Of a stretch of DNA of 51,379 nt, positions 30,912-37,606 are shown in pieces. Source of the stretch: a virus; the IMG/VR virus record IMGVR_UViG_3300048834_000363, positions 1 through 51,379 of that record, one strand, 5' to 3'. The translations under genes were made by a program, and so were the position numbers. Under the pieces are notes generated by a model. The model saw only the letters and a list, made by a program, of their open reading frames with translations. It did not search any database and had not been told where the DNA came from. Within the stretch, counting starts at the first letter, position 1. Every line of letters begins with the position of its first letter.

Positions 30912-31241
30912 TCAGCGCGGCCCGCTTTGTTTAGGGGGGGGGGATTTCAAGGCGCCGTCGATTTGGGCGGCCAAGGCGCGGCCTTCGGCGGTGATCTGCA
31001 CGTCGCGACGTTTGCTGCCGCCGCCGCGACAAACGCGCTGCACATAGCCGCGCGACTCCAGCGCATCGGTAAGCCGCGACACCACCGGCGCTGAGGCCTC
31101 AATTCGCCAAGCCAGATGCTTGAACGAAAGGCGGCCATCCTTGGCCGCGTCGAGCGCGCTTATCGCGGCAGCAGCGCGCACGGTCAGCGGGGCGGGAATG
31201 AGCCGCGCCAGCGCGACAAGGGATGCTGTGGCGCCGCTCAT
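30912..31241 (-). CDS. MarR-type winged-helix regulator
   Basis: 109 aa. LSFKHLAWRIEASAPVVSRLTDALESRGYVQRV followed by KRRDVQITAEGRAL is a MarR-like winged helix: recognition helix, then wing. The C-terminal tail is coded across a run of ten C (minus strand), a slippage-prone tract. Confidence 0.75.
   Translation of the reverse strand: MSGATASLVALARLIPAPLTVRAAAAISALDAAKDGRLSFKHLAWRIEASAPVVSRLTDALESRGYVQRVCRGGGSKRRDVQITAEGRALAAQIDGALKSPPPKQSGPR
30934..30943. repeat. G10/C10 homopolymer
   Basis: Ten consecutive G on the plus strand (C on the coding strand) encode Pro codons near the end of the MarR-like gene. Length change would only alter the last residues and the join to the next gene. Confidence 0.9.
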
Positions 31242-32083
31242 GCCGCGCTCGCTTGCTGCGCCGCCAGCGCCCCCTTGATCTTATCCCTGAGCCGGGCGCG
31301 CGCGGTGTCGCCTTGGTGGCGGGGCTTCTCGCCGCGCGCATCGCTGTCGAGCTGGTCGAGCTCGATCGCCTCGAACTGGGCGATGAAGGGCTTCGCCAGC
31401 GGCAGCTTGGGATATTCCGCGATGATCTCGCACAGCGACTGGATCGCGTTGGCGTGCACGGCCCCGGGGACGTTGTTTGACGTCTCCGTGATGCAGCGCA
31501 GCGCCAGTTTGAGCGTGTCGGCGCTGTAGCGCTTGATGCAGTTCTTGAGCGTGCCGATGGCACTGGTTTCGCCGGGTTTCAGCGACGAATTCTGGATCGG
31601 GTACGGCGCGATCGAGACGCCGGCCTCACGACAGATATTGACCAAGGCGAGCGCCGAGGGATCGCCCGACACAACGGCGGCGCGGAAGGTCGTCAGCGCC
31701 AAGACGCGCACGACGTTGCCGTTGATCGCGGCAAAGGCTGCGGCTTGCTCTGCCTCGGAGGCGTCGGAGATCAGGCAAGGCGCCGCAGTGATGTCGAGCA
31801 GCGCAAGCGCGGTGGCGCGGTGCTGGCCGTCGATGACGGCGTATTGTTGCGGATCGGTGCTGGCGATCGGCGCCACGCGCAACGCCCCGAACTTGAGCCA
31901 AGAAAATTCCGAGGCGATGCGCCGGATCGCGGTGATGCTGTCGCGGCCAAGCGGGCGCTGATAGGCTTCGTTGACGCGCAAATTCGCGATCGGAATCCAG
32001 TCGAAGGTCGGCTTCGGCCCCCGATTGAGCGGGGTGTGCTCAGGCTGGATCATGTCGGCGGCGGTGATGCGGCGGTAGGTCAT
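31238..32083 (-). CDS. ParB/sulfiredoxin-domain phage protein
   Basis: 281 aa. DWIPIANLRVNEAYQRPL, then YAVIDGQHRATALALL, is the ParB-N fold with the GxHR-type motif, as in phage DUF6551-like proteins. The rest is helical. Such phage proteins may bind nucleotide and act on DNA; no separate centromere-binding HTH is evident, so plasmid-type partition is not supported. Confidence 0.8.
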   Translation of the reverse strand: MTYRRITAADMIQPEHTPLNRGPKPTFDWIPIANLRVNEAYQRPLGRDSITAIRRIASEFSWLKFGALRVAPIASTDPQQYAVIDGQHRATALALLDITAAPCLISDASEAEQAAAFAAINGNVVRVLALTTFRAAVVSGDPSALALVNICREAGVSIAPYPIQNSSLKPGETSAIGTLKNCIKRYSADTLKLALRCITETSNNVPGAVHANAIQSLCEIIAEYPKLPLAKPFIAQFEAIELDQLDSDARGEKPRHQGDTARARLRDKIKGALAAQQASAA

Positions 32084-32580
32084 CGATAATAACTCGCTGC
32101 GCGGATGAATTGACGGACGATGGAGCCGGGGCGGTGGTAGCGGCCGCCCTGGTAGGCGAGGGCGGTGTGCTCGGCGCAGTAGGGGAGCTTTGCGGCCTTT
32201 GGCCGGCCGCAGCAGAGCTGCTGCTTTGGATCGTATTCACCGATCGGCCACATGCAGGAGGTGCTCGCCGTATCAAGCAGCGCGACGGGCTCGGCCTCAC
32301 CGATCGGCTTCCACGCATCTTCACGGGCGGGAGGCGCCACACCGAACATCGGATCGCCTTCCTCGACGATAGGTGAGGCGTCACGGCGCGGTCGGCCCTT
32401 TGGTTTCGATGGCGGCGTCACACCGAGCGCGATGTTGAGCCGTGCGCAGCGGCCGACGACGGCGAGCTCGGTGATGTGCATGCGGTGCGCGATCTGGCTT
32501 GGGCGCAGACCTTCAGCCGCAAGCGTGCGCAGCTGCTCGATGCGCTCTGGCGTCCAGGATGAGGCGACAACAGCGTTCAT
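32080..32580 (-). CDS. GcrA-like cell-cycle regulator
   Basis: 166 aa from the ATG at 32580. The N-terminus SSWTPERIEQLRTLAAEGLR followed by PSQIAHRMHITELAVVGRCARL is the GcrA helix-turn-helix. The C-terminus has CMWPIGEYDPKQQLCCGRP and LPYCAEHTALAYQ, the Cys-containing sigma-70-interacting domain. Host GcrA binds m6A-marked GANTC promoters and stimulates sigma-70 transcription. The phage copy could redirect this to phage promoters or change host cell-cycle expression. It lies next to an adenine methyltransferase and a DnaA-like protein. Confidence 0.85.
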   Translation of the reverse strand: MNAVVASSWTPERIEQLRTLAAEGLRPSQIAHRMHITELAVVGRCARLNIALGVTPPSKPKGRPRRDASPIVEEGDPMFGVAPPAREDAWKPIGEAEPVALLDTASTSCMWPIGEYDPKQQLCCGRPKAAKLPYCAEHTALAYQGGRYHRPGSIVRQFIRAASYYR

Positions 32581-32855
32581 GCCGGCGCCTGCTGTTGCTT
32601 GCGCGGCAAGCCGTTGATCATGTTGCTGCGGATGTCGCAGCGCGCCGATCGCATCGCGGCAACAAAGCTGGCGTCGACGAGCTTGACCTCGACGGTTTCG
32701 CCACGATCGGCCCAGAACGCCTCGATGCGCGCCTTCAAGCGCTTGGCGCCCTCGACGGTGCACCAATCGCGCGGTTCATCTGGATGGCGCACCGCGGCCT
32801 GCACTTCGGCCTCGCGGTCGCCCATGTAGAAACGCTGTGCGCGGTCACGTGGCAT
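32577..32855 (-). CDS. Small phage protein between GcrA and methyltransferase
   Basis: 92 aa from the ATG at 32855. It contains YMGDREAEVQAAVRHPDEPRD and a C-terminal segment MRSARCDIRSNMINGLP typical of small phage accessory proteins. No function recognised. It overlaps both neighbours (4 and 11 bases), so it belongs to the GcrA/methyltransferase block. Confidence 0.7.
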   Translation of the reverse strand: MPRDRAQRFYMGDREAEVQAAVRHPDEPRDWCTVEGAKRLKARIEAFWADRGETVEVKLVDASFVAAMRSARCDIRSNMINGLPRKQQQAPA

Positions 32856-33546
32856 CGCTGAACTCCGTCTCCTGATGTGGCTCGACCTCATTCCCCCAGG
32901 CGTCCCAGCCGGGCGCTGCGGTGCGGGCGAACAGTTCGAGGTATGGGCCCGCGACCTGGCGCTCGATGTCGGCGCGGACGCTGGCGGGCTTTTCGGAATG
33001 GCGCCCACGCGGGGCGATGATCAGTGCGCGCGGCGGATCTCGGAAGCGCGGGGCGCCGCGTGTCGCGATGAACAGGATTTCGGGATTGCCGCGCGCGATG
33101 TAGCCGGTGCCCATCGGGAAGTTCTGATCGAGAGAGAGCGTCGGATCGAAGCCGGCCTTGCGAGTCTTCGCCCAGATGCGTGCCGTGTTTTGCTTGAAGC
33201 CCCAGGCTTCGATCACCTGCAGCGCCTGCGGGATCATGTTCAGCACGCCCCAGAAGAAAAGCACGCTGTCGCGCGCGGCGAGCTGGCCGACATCGAGTGC
33301 GCACATCTCGTCGACCGCCATCGTGGGATAGTGGTTGAGCTCGTCGGCGAAGCCGCCCTCGTTATCGAGCAGCGGAGCGGGTGCGACGTAGTCTTGACCG
33401 TCGGGCGATCGACCGCGCCCCTTGCGCGAGTGCGTGCTGAAGCGCCAAGGATTGTCGGCAAGGATCGCGCCATAGCCAGACACGCCGGAGATCCAATCGC
33501 GCTGCACATCACGCGCGCCACGAACGAAGGTGCCGCCGGCAAGCAT
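32845..33546 (-). CDS. MT-A70 family adenine methyltransferase
   Basis: 233 aa from the ATG at 33546. The catalytic motif reads ADNPWRFSTHSRKG, so the usual DPPW is DNPW. Later blocks NPEILFIATRG, SEKPASVRADIERQV and LELFARTAAPGWDAWGNEV are strong MT-A70 signatures, the last two including the SAM-binding part. Predicted to make N6-methyladenine in DNA. The immediate neighbours are the GcrA-like and DnaA-like genes, which suggests a link to methylation-dependent regulation or to protection from restriction. Confidence 0.88.
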   Translation of the reverse strand: MLAGGTFVRGARDVQRDWISGVSGYGAILADNPWRFSTHSRKGRGRSPDGQDYVAPAPLLDNEGGFADELNHYPTMAVDEMCALDVGQLAARDSVLFFWGVLNMIPQALQVIEAWGFKQNTARIWAKTRKAGFDPTLSLDQNFPMGTGYIARGNPEILFIATRGAPRFRDPPRALIIAPRGRHSEKPASVRADIERQVAGPYLELFARTAAPGWDAWGNEVEPHQETEFSDAT

Positions 33547-33641
33547 CAGACCGCGCACTCCAGCATGATCGCATAAACCTCAGCGGCGATGCCGACGAGC
33601 GCGATCGCAATGAAGGCGGCGCCGATAATGAGCCCGATCAT
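33546..33641 (-). CDS. 31-aa membrane peptide
   Basis: A single hydrophobic helix, MIGLIIGAAFIAIALVGIAA, with a short tail. Its start overlaps the stop of the DnaA-like gene and its stop overlaps the methyltransferase start (TGATG on both sides), which supports it as a real coupled gene despite its size. Confidence 0.5.
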   Translation of the reverse strand: MIGLIIGAAFIAIALVGIAAEVYAIMLECAV

Positions 33642-33937
33642 GATGCCTGCTCCAGCTTGTGCGCTTCGCGGAAGGCGGCGATTTGTGCGGCGTGGCGTTG
33701 TGCGGCGGCACTCGCTGTCTTGGCCGAGACCCCCAGCGCTTGCGCTGCGCGCTCCGCCGACCATTTGCGCTGCACGATGAGCTTCCAGAACAGCGCATCC
33801 CGCGCCGCCGCGATGTGCTCGCCGTGGCGCGCATCCTTGCGCTTCAGCGAGCGCGTACGGATGCCGTAATGCGCTGCGATCTCGCGCATCTCGACTGAGA
33901 GCGTGTGACCGGGGAGGGCGCCGAAGGGAACGATCAT
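33638..33937 (-). CDS. DnaA domain IV-like DNA-binding protein
   Basis: 99 aa. EIAAHYGIRTRSLKRKDARHGEHIAAARDALFW followed by WSAERAAQALGVSAKTASAAAQRHA follows the helix pattern of the DnaA C-terminal DNA-binding domain, without the ATPase part. The DnaA signature D-H-(S/T) is replaced, so DnaA-box binding is uncertain. Possible roles are binding the phage origin or competing for DnaA-type sites. Confidence 0.65.
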   Translation of the reverse strand: MIVPFGALPGHTLSVEMREIAAHYGIRTRSLKRKDARHGEHIAAARDALFWKLIVQRKWSAERAAQALGVSAKTASAAAQRHAAQIAAFREAHKLEQAS

Positions 33938-34476
33938 TCACGCCGCGCCCCGCGTGCTGCGAACAGCGGATCGTAGAGCGGCGCATGTTCGGGGAAGAAA
34001 TGGGTGACGCCATGCACGAAGCAGCCGAGCGCGTCGGCCTCGTGATCGTTGGCGGGGGAGAAGCCGCGCCGCTTCGCTGCGGCGATCATGTCGTGCTTCT
34101 GCGCGCGGCCGCTGCCGGCGAATTCCTTTTTGAGCGTGACGGTGACGACCTCGAGAACGGGGATGTCGCGCGCGAAGCAAATCTCTTCACACACCGCTGC
34201 GGCCCCGAAGGCGCGGCGGATTTGGTTCGGGCTTTCGTGCCAGCGGCCGTCGGCGCCCTTGTGCCTCGCGACGTACGGAGCTTCGAAGACAACGAGCGTG
34301 ATGCCGCGCATCAGGCGATCATCGAGCTTGTTGCGCAGCGCATGCATGAAGGCGCCGACTTCGTCGCCGTCGCCGCTGGGCATCGTCCAGGTCTCGGTGA
34401 TGATGCGATGCGGAGGGGCGCCGGCGTCGCCATAAGCGACACCGGTCTTGGTTGCGAAATCCAATCCAAGGATCAT
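33934..34476 (-). CDS. RuvC-like Holliday junction resolvase
   Basis: 180 aa. The RNase H-like acidic residues are seen in MILGLDFATKTGVAYGD, VVFEAPYVAR and DHEADALGCF, in the right order for RuvC-family resolvases. Predicted to resolve replication or recombination junctions before packaging. It overlaps the DnaA-like gene by 4 bases. Confidence 0.85.
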   Translation of the reverse strand: MILGLDFATKTGVAYGDAGAPPHRIITETWTMPSGDGDEVGAFMHALRNKLDDRLMRGITLVVFEAPYVARHKGADGRWHESPNQIRRAFGAAAVCEEICFARDIPVLEVVTVTLKKEFAGSGRAQKHDMIAAAKRRGFSPANDHEADALGCFVHGVTHFFPEHAPLYDPLFAARGARRE

Positions 34477-36670: not shown

Positions 36671-37606
36671 ATGAACACGCATACCGCAGACGAAAACATC
36701 GATCCGACGGCGCCGCTCGCGCCATCTGGTCGGCCCTGGGCTTACGGGCTGCGCACATGCGGGCCAAAAGGCGAGGCCTACAACGGTTTCACCTGGCCGA
36801 CCGAAAAGGGCGCAGTTGTTTCAGCGCCGGATTTTGATCCATCGCCAACCTGCGGCGGCGGCCTGCACCTCAACCCGTGGGGCATGGGCGACTGGTCGCT
36901 GCATTCGTATCACGCGTCCGCCCTGTGGATGGTGGTGCGGTACGACCCCGCGCTGGCGGTCGAACTCGACGGCGGTGAGCGTGGCGGCAAGATCAAGGCC
37001 CCTTGGGCCATCGTTGAGCAGGTCGAAACGCGGGAAAACCTTGCGCGCCTCCTCGGTCCGCTGGCGGTTCGGCGCATCGCTCGCATCAAGGAAATCACCT
37101 GTGACGCTGCGACGACCGGCTACGCCGCGCACGCTGCGACGACCGGCTACGCCGCGCACGCTGCGACGACCGGCTACGCCGCGCACGCTGCGACGACCGG
37201 CGACGCCGCGCACGCTGCGACGACCGGCGACGCCGCGCACGCTGCGACGACCGGCGGCCGCGCGCACGCTGCGACGACCGGCGGCCGCGCGCACGCTGCG
37301 ACGACCGGCGGCCGCGCGCACGCTGCGACGACCGGCGACGCCGCGCACGCTGCGACGACCGGCGGCCGCGCGCACGCTGCGACGACCGGCGACGACGCAA
37401 TCTCGGCAAGTCTCGGAATCGATGCACGGGCCAAGGCTGGCGCGGGCGGCGCAATCATGCTCGCCGAATACGGTTGGCGACCAGCGCTCGGCAAATACGA
37501 GCTCGTCGCCGTGTTCGCCTCCAAGGTGGGCGAGGGCGGCATTGAGCCCGACACCTGGTACAAGCTCGAAGGTGGCAAGCCTGTGGCGATCGAGGTGTCG
37601 CCATGA
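36671..37606 (+). CDS. DUF7666-like protein with 9-residue tandem repeats
   Basis: 311 aa. An N-terminal domain (WPTEKGAVVSAPDFDPSP, GGGLHLNPWGMGDWS) and a C-terminal segment (YGWRPALGKYELVAVFASKV) flank ten near-identical units AATTG-(YA/DA/GR)-AH, plus a partial eleventh. The repeats may form a beta-solenoid rod as in related phage/plasmid proteins. It is the first gene of the right early operon. Function unknown. Confidence 0.75.
   Translation: MNTHTADENIDPTAPLAPSGRPWAYGLRTCGPKGEAYNGFTWPTEKGAVVSAPDFDPSPTCGGGLHLNPWGMGDWSLHSYHASALWMVVRYDPALAVELDGGERGGKIKAPWAIVEQVETRENLARLLGPLAVRRIARIKEITCDAATTGYAAHAATTGYAAHAATTGYAAHAATTGDAAHAATTGDAAHAATTGGRAHAATTGGRAHAATTGGRAHAATTGDAAHAATTGGRAHAATTGDDAISASLGIDARAKAGAGGAIMLAEYGWRPALGKYELVAVFASKVGEGGIEPDTWYKLEGGKPVAIEVSP
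37106..37393 (+). repeat. 27-bp tandem repeat array inside a gene
   Basis: Ten full 27-bp units from 37106 to 37375 and a partial eleventh. The first five codons and the last are constant, while codons 6-8 vary as a cassette (TAC-GCC-GCG, GAC-GCC-GCG, GGC-CGC-GCG). This suggests expansion by recombination or slippage (VNTR). All three forward frames stay open across it. Confidence 0.95.

What the first reader, a model, noticed from the sequence alone, without database searches (positions are those of the whole stretch)
32080..33937. Phage block with GcrA homologue, adenine methyltransferase and DnaA-like protein
Within 1.9 kb the early operon carries a full GcrA-like regulator (N-terminal HTH and C-terminal Cys-containing sigma-interacting domain), an MT-A70 adenine methyltransferase and a stand-alone DnaA domain IV-like protein, separated only by a 92-aa and a 31-aa gene and all coupled by overlaps. 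In Caulobacter-type hosts GcrA, the methylase CcrM and DnaA are three of the master cell-cycle regulators, and GcrA reads N6-methyladenine. The phage may carry its own reader, writer and origin-binding factor to retime host or phage transcription. Seen: the domains and coupling. Known: the GcrA/CcrM/DnaA circuit. Inferred: joint function.
Basis: partly seen in the sequence, partly recalled or inferred. Interest (0 to 1): 0.82.

Follow-up and report, generated by a model that had tools for sequence, protein, structure and literature searches.

The report
Phage GcrA regulator beside adenine methylase
This temperate phage of an alphaproteobacterium carries its own copy of the host's RNA-polymerase helper GcrA close to a DNA adenine methylase; such phage GcrA genes prove common and are somewhat more often beside a methylase than chance predicts, but the third gene is only doubtfully DnaA-like, and this GcrA has lost residues of its DNA-reading helix that its relatives keep.

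Summary
Confirmed: a GcrA homologue (PF07750, 76.6 bits) with an intact sigma-binding Cys/His domain, and an MT-A70 adenine methyltransferase (PF05063, 64 bits), in one translationally coupled early operon. The coupling runs through about eight genes, so it is not special to these three. The 99-aa "DnaA domain IV" protein has no DnaA_C match; it shows only a weak colinear resemblance and lacks the GRDHTT signature.

I collected 203 non-redundant phage GcrA loci. A DNA methyltransferase of one of three families lies in the same operon in 53 and next to GcrA in 24, against 13.6 expected (P about 0.001). Replication and resolvase genes show no such excess. The effect is modest and is lost under strict de-replication. 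Genuine stand-alone DnaA-domain-IV proteins occur in 21 of the 203, always on the same strand; nine phages hold all three. The triad is therefore real in other phages, less so here.

In the window GcrA the recognition-helix pair R33-N34 (R/K at 33 in 99/99 aligned phages) is E-L, so m6A/GANTC reading is doubtful. Best reading: a phage sigma70 co-activator for phage promoters plus an orphan methylase. The best precedent for small DnaA-like proteins is GafY, which binds sigma70, not an origin binder.

The parts
32080..32580 (-). GcrA homologue, 166 aa: N-terminal HTH with altered recognition helix (TELAVVGR for TRNAVIGK), C-terminal sigma-interacting domain with intact C/C/C/H set
   Evidence: PF07750 76.6 bits; PDB 7ye1, 5yix, 5yiu; residue comparison with 86 host and about 250 phage GcrAs
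32577..32855 (-). 92-aa protein of unknown function; a relative lies 241 bp downstream of GcrA in another phage (L094:8808-9062)
   Evidence: no Pfam or PHROG match; phmmer E 2.9e-7 to L094
32845..33546 (-). MT-A70 family adenine methyltransferase, 233 aa, motif IV DNPW instead of DPPW
   Evidence: PF05063 64.3 bits, phrog_359 190 bits, motif survey
33546..33641 (-). 31-aa ORF, one hydrophobic stretch; not shown to be a gene
   Evidence: no relatives
33638..33937 (-).
33934..34476 (-). RuvC-like Holliday junction resolvase, coupled upstream gene of the same operon
   Evidence: phrog_159 E 1.2e-17
31238..32083 (-). ParB-like / DUF6551 protein, coupled downstream gene of the same operon
   Evidence: PF20188 39.2 bits; phrog_1033 E 1.2e-13
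30912..31241 (-). MarR-like winged-helix protein of the same operon
   Evidence: PF12802 29.7 bits
35263..36033 (+). S24/HTH repressor-like gene, divergent from the early operon
   Evidence: phrog_4 transcriptional repressor E 3.5e-11

Best explanation
The window GcrA is most likely a phage-encoded sigma70 co-activator. Its intact C-terminal domain should bind the host's housekeeping sigma factor, while its altered HTH brings that polymerase to phage promoters (middle or late genes, or its own operon) rather than to the host's methylated GANTC promoters. The MT-A70 protein is most likely an orphan adenine methylase of the phage; its marks may protect phage DNA or tune promoters, in other phages possibly those read by GcrA. 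The 99-aa protein is a small DNA-binding protein of uncertain kind; if it is DnaA-domain-IV-like, the best functional precedent is GafY, a phage-derived activator that binds sigma70, not an origin binder. Shown here: the GcrA and MT-A70 families, the operon, the preserved sigma-domain residues, the altered recognition helix, and the statistical link of phage GcrA to methylases. Inferred: sigma binding, promoter targets, methylase activity, any joint action.
For: Both GcrA domains match by profile and PDB. GcrA is described as a sigma2-binding activator (PMC7403470), and the residues of that domain are kept here, the C/C/C/H set also in 207 of 212 phages. E33/L34 replace residues that are R/K in 99/99 aligned phages and N in all hosts. 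A GcrA-dependent prophage structural operon exists in Brevundimonas (PMC7987155). GcrA loci are common in phages and methylases of three families are enriched next to them. GafY binds RpoD (PMC11150451).
Against: No binding or expression data. The meaning of E33/L34 rests on invariance, not on a structure read here (the structural paper was not held). No GcrA-type site could be identified upstream of the late genes; GANTC sites are not concentrated between genes. The phage could equally act on host promoters.
Confidence: 0.5

Rival explanations
1. One reading: a self-contained writer (methylase), reader (GcrA) and DnaA-like origin or promoter factor that retimes host or phage transcription in a methylation-dependent way.
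For: Methylase adjacency above chance with three families; nine phages hold GcrA, methylase and a true DnaA_C protein, some as overlapping genes (L510, L005); host GcrA prefers m6A-marked DNA (PMC3667746); alphaproteobacterial phage methylases with GANTC specificity exist (PMC5537653).
Against: Window recognition helix altered; MT-A70 motif IV altered and target unknown; 99-aa protein not demonstrably DnaA; methylase and DnaA_C occur independently of each other (P 0.32); adjacency not significant after strict de-replication; none of 59 MT-A70 loci in alphaproteobacterial genomes has GcrA nearby.
Confidence: 0.2
2. Mosaic early operon: GcrA, the methylase and the HTH protein are independent accessory genes (transcription, anti-restriction, regulation) that share an operon only because early genes of alphaproteobacterial phages cluster.
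For: Overlaps run through the whole operon; in two related phages the slot upstream of GcrA holds RusA in one (L092) and a methylase in the other (L094); only 53 of 203 loci have a methylase in the run and 24 next to GcrA; DnaA_C not closer to GcrA than a random operon gene.
Against: Methylases are the one major class with an excess of direct adjacency to GcrA (1.76-fold, P 0.0006), in both gene orders.
Confidence: 0.25
3. A sigma-binding decoy: with its recognition helix changed, the phage GcrA mainly competes with host GcrA for sigma70 and damps the host cell-cycle programme.
For: Sigma domain kept, recognition helix charge-reversed.
Against: Other HTH residues (SWTPER, hydrophobic positions, R42) are kept, so binding to some DNA is likely; no example of such a decoy GcrA was found.
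Confidence: 0.05

Closest known systems
phiCbK gp222, GcrA homologue of Caulobacter phages (PMC3556154)
   Same: Phage-borne GcrA-family protein, thought to act on host sigma70 transcription
   Different: phiCbK is a 200-kb lytic phage; no coupled methylase or DnaA-like gene is described for it; the window copy has an altered recognition helix
Host GcrA/CcrM pair of Alphaproteobacteria (PMC3667746, PMC7403470)
   Same: GcrA-family protein and adenine methylase; GANTC-depleted genome
   Different: The methylase is MT-A70 rather than CcrM; reader residues R33/N34 changed; genes in one phage operon
CcrM-like phage methylases of phiLM21 and relatives (PMC5537653)
   Same: Orphan adenine methylases near the replication module of alphaproteobacterial temperate phages
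   Different: Those have NPPW/F/Y motifs and GANTC specificity; the window enzyme is MT-A70 with DNPW and unknown specificity
GafA / GafYZ activators of gene transfer agents (PMC9638019, PMC11150451)
   Same: Small DnaA-like DNA-binding protein in a phage-derived system; GafY recruits RNA polymerase through sigma70
   Different: No GcrA or methylase described with them; the window's 99-aa protein is not demonstrably of this family and no GafZ partner was found

Membership tests
GcrA (PF07750) | Whole-length match above the curated cut-off | tested here: met
   76.6 bits vs cut-off 26.9, profile 2-148 of 155
GcrA (PF07750) | C-terminal sigma-interacting domain with conserved C/C/C/H and WPxG | tested here: met
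   C118, W120, P121, G123, C133, Y142, C143, H146 equivalents present
GcrA (PF07750) | Conserved recognition helix TRNAVIGK | tested here: not met
   window has TELAVVGR; position 33 is R/K in 99/99 aligned phages. Family membership stands by the whole profile; identical reading specificity is not claimed
GcrA (PF07750) | Binding to sigma70 and to m6A DNA | not testable with these tools
   needs biochemistry
MT-A70 (PF05063) | Match above the curated cut-off | tested here: met
   64.3 bits vs 23.9
MT-A70 (PF05063) | Catalytic motif IV DPPW | tested here: not met
   DNPW; first D, third P and W kept, so activity is possible but must be tested
DnaA domain IV (PF08299) | Match to Bac_DnaA_C | tested here: not met
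   no match at E up to 1 in the record
DnaA domain IV (PF08299) | GRDHTT DnaA-box recognition motif | tested here: not met
   window has GVSAKTASAAAQ at that place
DnaA domain IV (PF08299) | Remote profile similarity | tested here: inconclusive
   hhalign score 18.2, above 60/60 shuffles, but two of 120 other small phage proteins score higher
GafYZ-type activator | Small DnaA-like gene directly followed by a DUF6456/GafZ gene | tested here: not met
   next genes are a 31-aa ORF and MT-A70; no DUF6456 among the ten operon-region proteins scanned
CcrM-like pair | Methylase specific for GANTC | not testable with these tools
   no specificity can be read from an MT-A70 sequence

The most novel reading that the evidence does not exclude
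Alphaproteobacterial phages have repeatedly assembled a portable mimic of the host cell-cycle circuit: an adenine methylase from any of three families, a GcrA that recruits sigma70, and often a DnaA-domain-IV activator, working as a methylation-timed switch for phage gene expression. The window is a diverged member with its own recognition specificity.
Probability: 0.18. Interest if true: 0.85.

Novelty: new variant of a known kind. Interest (0 to 1): 0.5.

Why it matters
Phage GcrA was described from phiCbK and a few prophages. If writer and reader act together, this would be a phage-borne epigenetic transcription switch and a natural test of GcrA/CcrM logic outside the host. The altered recognition helix in this copy offers a direct way to learn which residues set GcrA's DNA and methyl specificity.

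Tried and rejected
Terminase-anchored searches for close relatives in the viral and genome collections found none, and a DNA search of the phage collection found none, so there is no close synteny set for the window. tblastn of two phage GcrAs against the phage collection found one record each, so that collection was no use for counting. PF07750 over 387 alphaproteobacterial genomes listed mostly chromosomal-type copies and was cut off before the weaker second copies. A YqaJ-anchored neutral sample was too small (18 of 385 genomes). DnaA_C adjacency to GcrA by gene rank is not significant (7 vs 5.4), though all 21 cases are on the same strand. Rejected: that overlaps by themselves link the three genes; they span the operon. 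Rejected: concentration of GANTC sites between genes. An alignment carrying a hand-made pattern (A3) was made but used for no search; a plain IUPAC pattern was used instead. The first DnaA_C profile had wrongly oriented seeds and was replaced.

Full report
THE OBSERVATION. The window is a 51,379-base viral record, 64.6% G+C, with terminase, portal, major head protein, integrase and an S24-type repressor: a temperate tailed phage or prophage. The block lies in a leftward early operon. In transcription order: RuvC-like resolvase (34476-33934), a 99-aa protein (33937-33638), a 31-aa ORF (33641-33546), MT-A70 (33546-32845), a 92-aa protein (32855-32577), GcrA (32580-32080), a ParB-like protein (32083-31238) and a MarR-like protein (31241-30912). 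All these junctions overlap, so the overlaps are a property of the operon, not of the three genes.

IDENTITIES. GcrA matches PF07750 at 76.6 bits over nearly the whole profile and matches Caulobacter GcrA in the PDB in both the DNA-binding and the sigma-binding parts. The methylase is MT-A70 (64.3 bits; phrog_359 190 bits). The 99-aa protein is not a recognisable DnaA domain IV: no Pfam hit, no hit in a dedicated PF08299 search at E up to 1, none in the PDB, no relative in the phage collection. Against a profile of 19 real DnaA_C domains it aligns colinearly over 52 residues with a score above all 60 shuffles, but two of 120 other small phage proteins scored higher and the GRDHTT signature is missing. 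Its single-sequence model is poor and matches only generic HTH folds, without significance. I call it a putative HTH protein.

THIS GcrA HAS A CHANGED READING HEAD. Aligned to 86 host GcrAs and about 250 phage GcrAs, the window keeps the sigma-domain residues, including the C118/C133/C143/H146 set that is intact in 207 of 212 phages. In the recognition helix it has TELAVVGR where others have TRNAVIGK. Position 33 is R in all hosts and R or K in all 99 aligned phages of the sample not selected on that motif; the window has E. Position 34, N in all hosts, is L. So sigma70 binding is likely kept, but reading of methylated GANTC cannot be assumed. The structural paper that would show which residues touch DNA was not held, so this is inference from invariance.

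HOW COMMON, AND WHAT SITS NEXT TO IT. With ten loci from earlier work (the window among them) and de-replication at 60% identity this gave 203 loci. Genes were called with a codon-usage model. Frequent neighbours within 6 kb are DnaB, replication proteins, VRR-NUC, MT-A70, YqaJ, ERF, RuvC and several DNA methyltransferases (names other than those checked by Pfam are my reading of the sequences). In a test that keeps each operon fixed and moves only the position of GcrA, methyltransferases (MT-A70, NPPY type, N6/N4 type) are immediate neighbours in 24 of 53 loci against 13.6 expected (P about 0.001). The same test gives no excess for DnaB (3 vs 6.4), replication protein (7 vs 8.4), RuvC (2 vs 3.5), RusA (2 vs 3.0) or HNH (1 vs 1.5); only a small Mu gp16-like set is also raised (4 vs 1.1, P 0.013). 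The limits are plain: sample 1 P 0.004, sample 2 P 0.2, and with one locus per 40% single-linkage cluster 6 vs about 4.3, not significant. Starting instead from MT-A70, a handful of the best 80 viral relatives have GcrA within the fetched flanks: L005, L010, L031 and L047 within about 1.1 kb, L082 3.2 kb, L020 6.5 kb; none of 59 MT-A70 loci in alphaproteobacterial genomes do. The link is real but modest.

THE TRIAD EXISTS ELSEWHERE. A PF08299 search of GcrA phage records found true stand-alone DnaA-domain-IV proteins in seven of 42, and none in the window. Among the 203 loci, 21 have one in the available stretch, all on the GcrA strand, 16 within 1.2 kb. Eight also have a methylase, and L005 makes nine. 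Clear cases are L510 (DnaA_C, GcrA, N6/N4-type methylase, each overlapping the next) and L005 (MT-A70, GcrA, tandem DnaA_C). But methylase and DnaA_C occur independently of each other (P 0.32), DnaA_C is not closer to GcrA than a random operon gene (7 vs 5.4), and DnaA_C also occurs near MT-A70 without GcrA.

WHAT THE DnaA-LIKE PROTEINS MAY DO. The characterised small DnaA-like proteins of phage origin in this class are the GafA N-terminus and GafY. In Hyphomicrobiales a small DnaA-like gene precedes the gafA-like (DUF6456) gene near mucR (PMC9638019); I see what looks like the same arrangement in chromosomal loci L530 and L534 (read from the sequence, not by a family search). GafY binds sigma70 and recruits polymerase (PMC11150451). 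Transcription activation is therefore at least as likely as replication control.

HOST AND METHYLATION CONTEXT. GANTC is depleted to 0.32 of expectation (83 vs about 263), the lowest of all 16 palindromes of that form; phage GcrA loci overall give 0.30 and alphaproteobacterial chromosomal loci 0.34, while viral MT-A70 loci without GcrA give 0.50. This fits a phage of a CcrM/GcrA host. GANTC sites are not concentrated between genes (5 of 83 in 8% of the sequence). The MT-A70 motif IV is DNPW, seen in no other sequence compared; near phage GcrA only 5 of 16 readable MT-A70 motifs are DPPW, against 53 of 56 in alphaproteobacterial genomes (several of the 16 may share ancestry). Catalytic activity should be tested, not assumed. 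Known alphaproteobacterial phage methylases with GANTC specificity have NPPW/F/Y motifs (PMC5537653).

MECHANISM AND VERDICT. Best supported: the phage uses its GcrA to bring host sigma70 polymerase to phage promoters; the methylase is an orphan modification enzyme that may or may not act with it; the small HTH protein has an unknown target. A GcrA-dependent prophage structural operon in Brevundimonas is a precedent (PMC7987155). Phage GcrA is known from phiCbK (PMC3556154) and phiLM21-like prophages (PMC12429752). I found no paper in the library describing the linkage with methylases or DnaA-domain proteins. New here: how widespread phage GcrA is, its modest link to methylases of three families, the DnaA_C-GcrA-methylase groupings, and the altered recognition helix of this copy. 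Interest 0.5.

Noticed in passing
L510:3973-5749; L005:2746-4453; L366:7234-9994; L452:2127-3629: Other phages with GcrA, a DNA methyltransferase and a genuine DnaA-domain-IV protein as near neighbours; clearer examples of the proposed triad than the window.
   Followed up: partly
L409:6574-8439: Four consecutive ORFs each with a DnaA_C-type domain, 3.7 kb downstream of a phage GcrA.
   Followed up: no
L092:1-2804 and L094:6771-8567: Two related phages share HNH and GcrA, but the slot upstream of GcrA holds a RusA-like gene in L092 and an N6/N4-type methylase in L094.
   Followed up: partly
MT-A70 genes in L307, L336, L369, L469 (DPPT); L303, L391, L393 (DPEW); window 32845-33546 (DNPW): MT-A70 proteins near phage GcrA often have an altered catalytic motif IV (11 of 16), unlike those in alphaproteobacterial genomes (3 of 56); they may be inactive or altered.
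   Followed up: partly
window 32577-32855 (-) and L094:8808-9062: Small protein family ending in RSNMxNGLPR found close to GcrA in two otherwise different phages; function unknown.
   Followed up: partly
window 36671-37606 (+): 311-aa ORF with tandem AATTG(Y/D)AAH-type repeats in its middle.
   Followed up: no
whole window: GANTC is depleted about threefold, the strongest depletion among the 16 palindromes of that form; the window has no tRNA gene.
   Followed up: yes
L529, L530, L534: Chromosomal small DnaA_C genes beside a MucR-like gene; in L530 and L534 also followed by a DUF6456-like gene, the arrangement described for gafYZ-type activators.
   Followed up: partly
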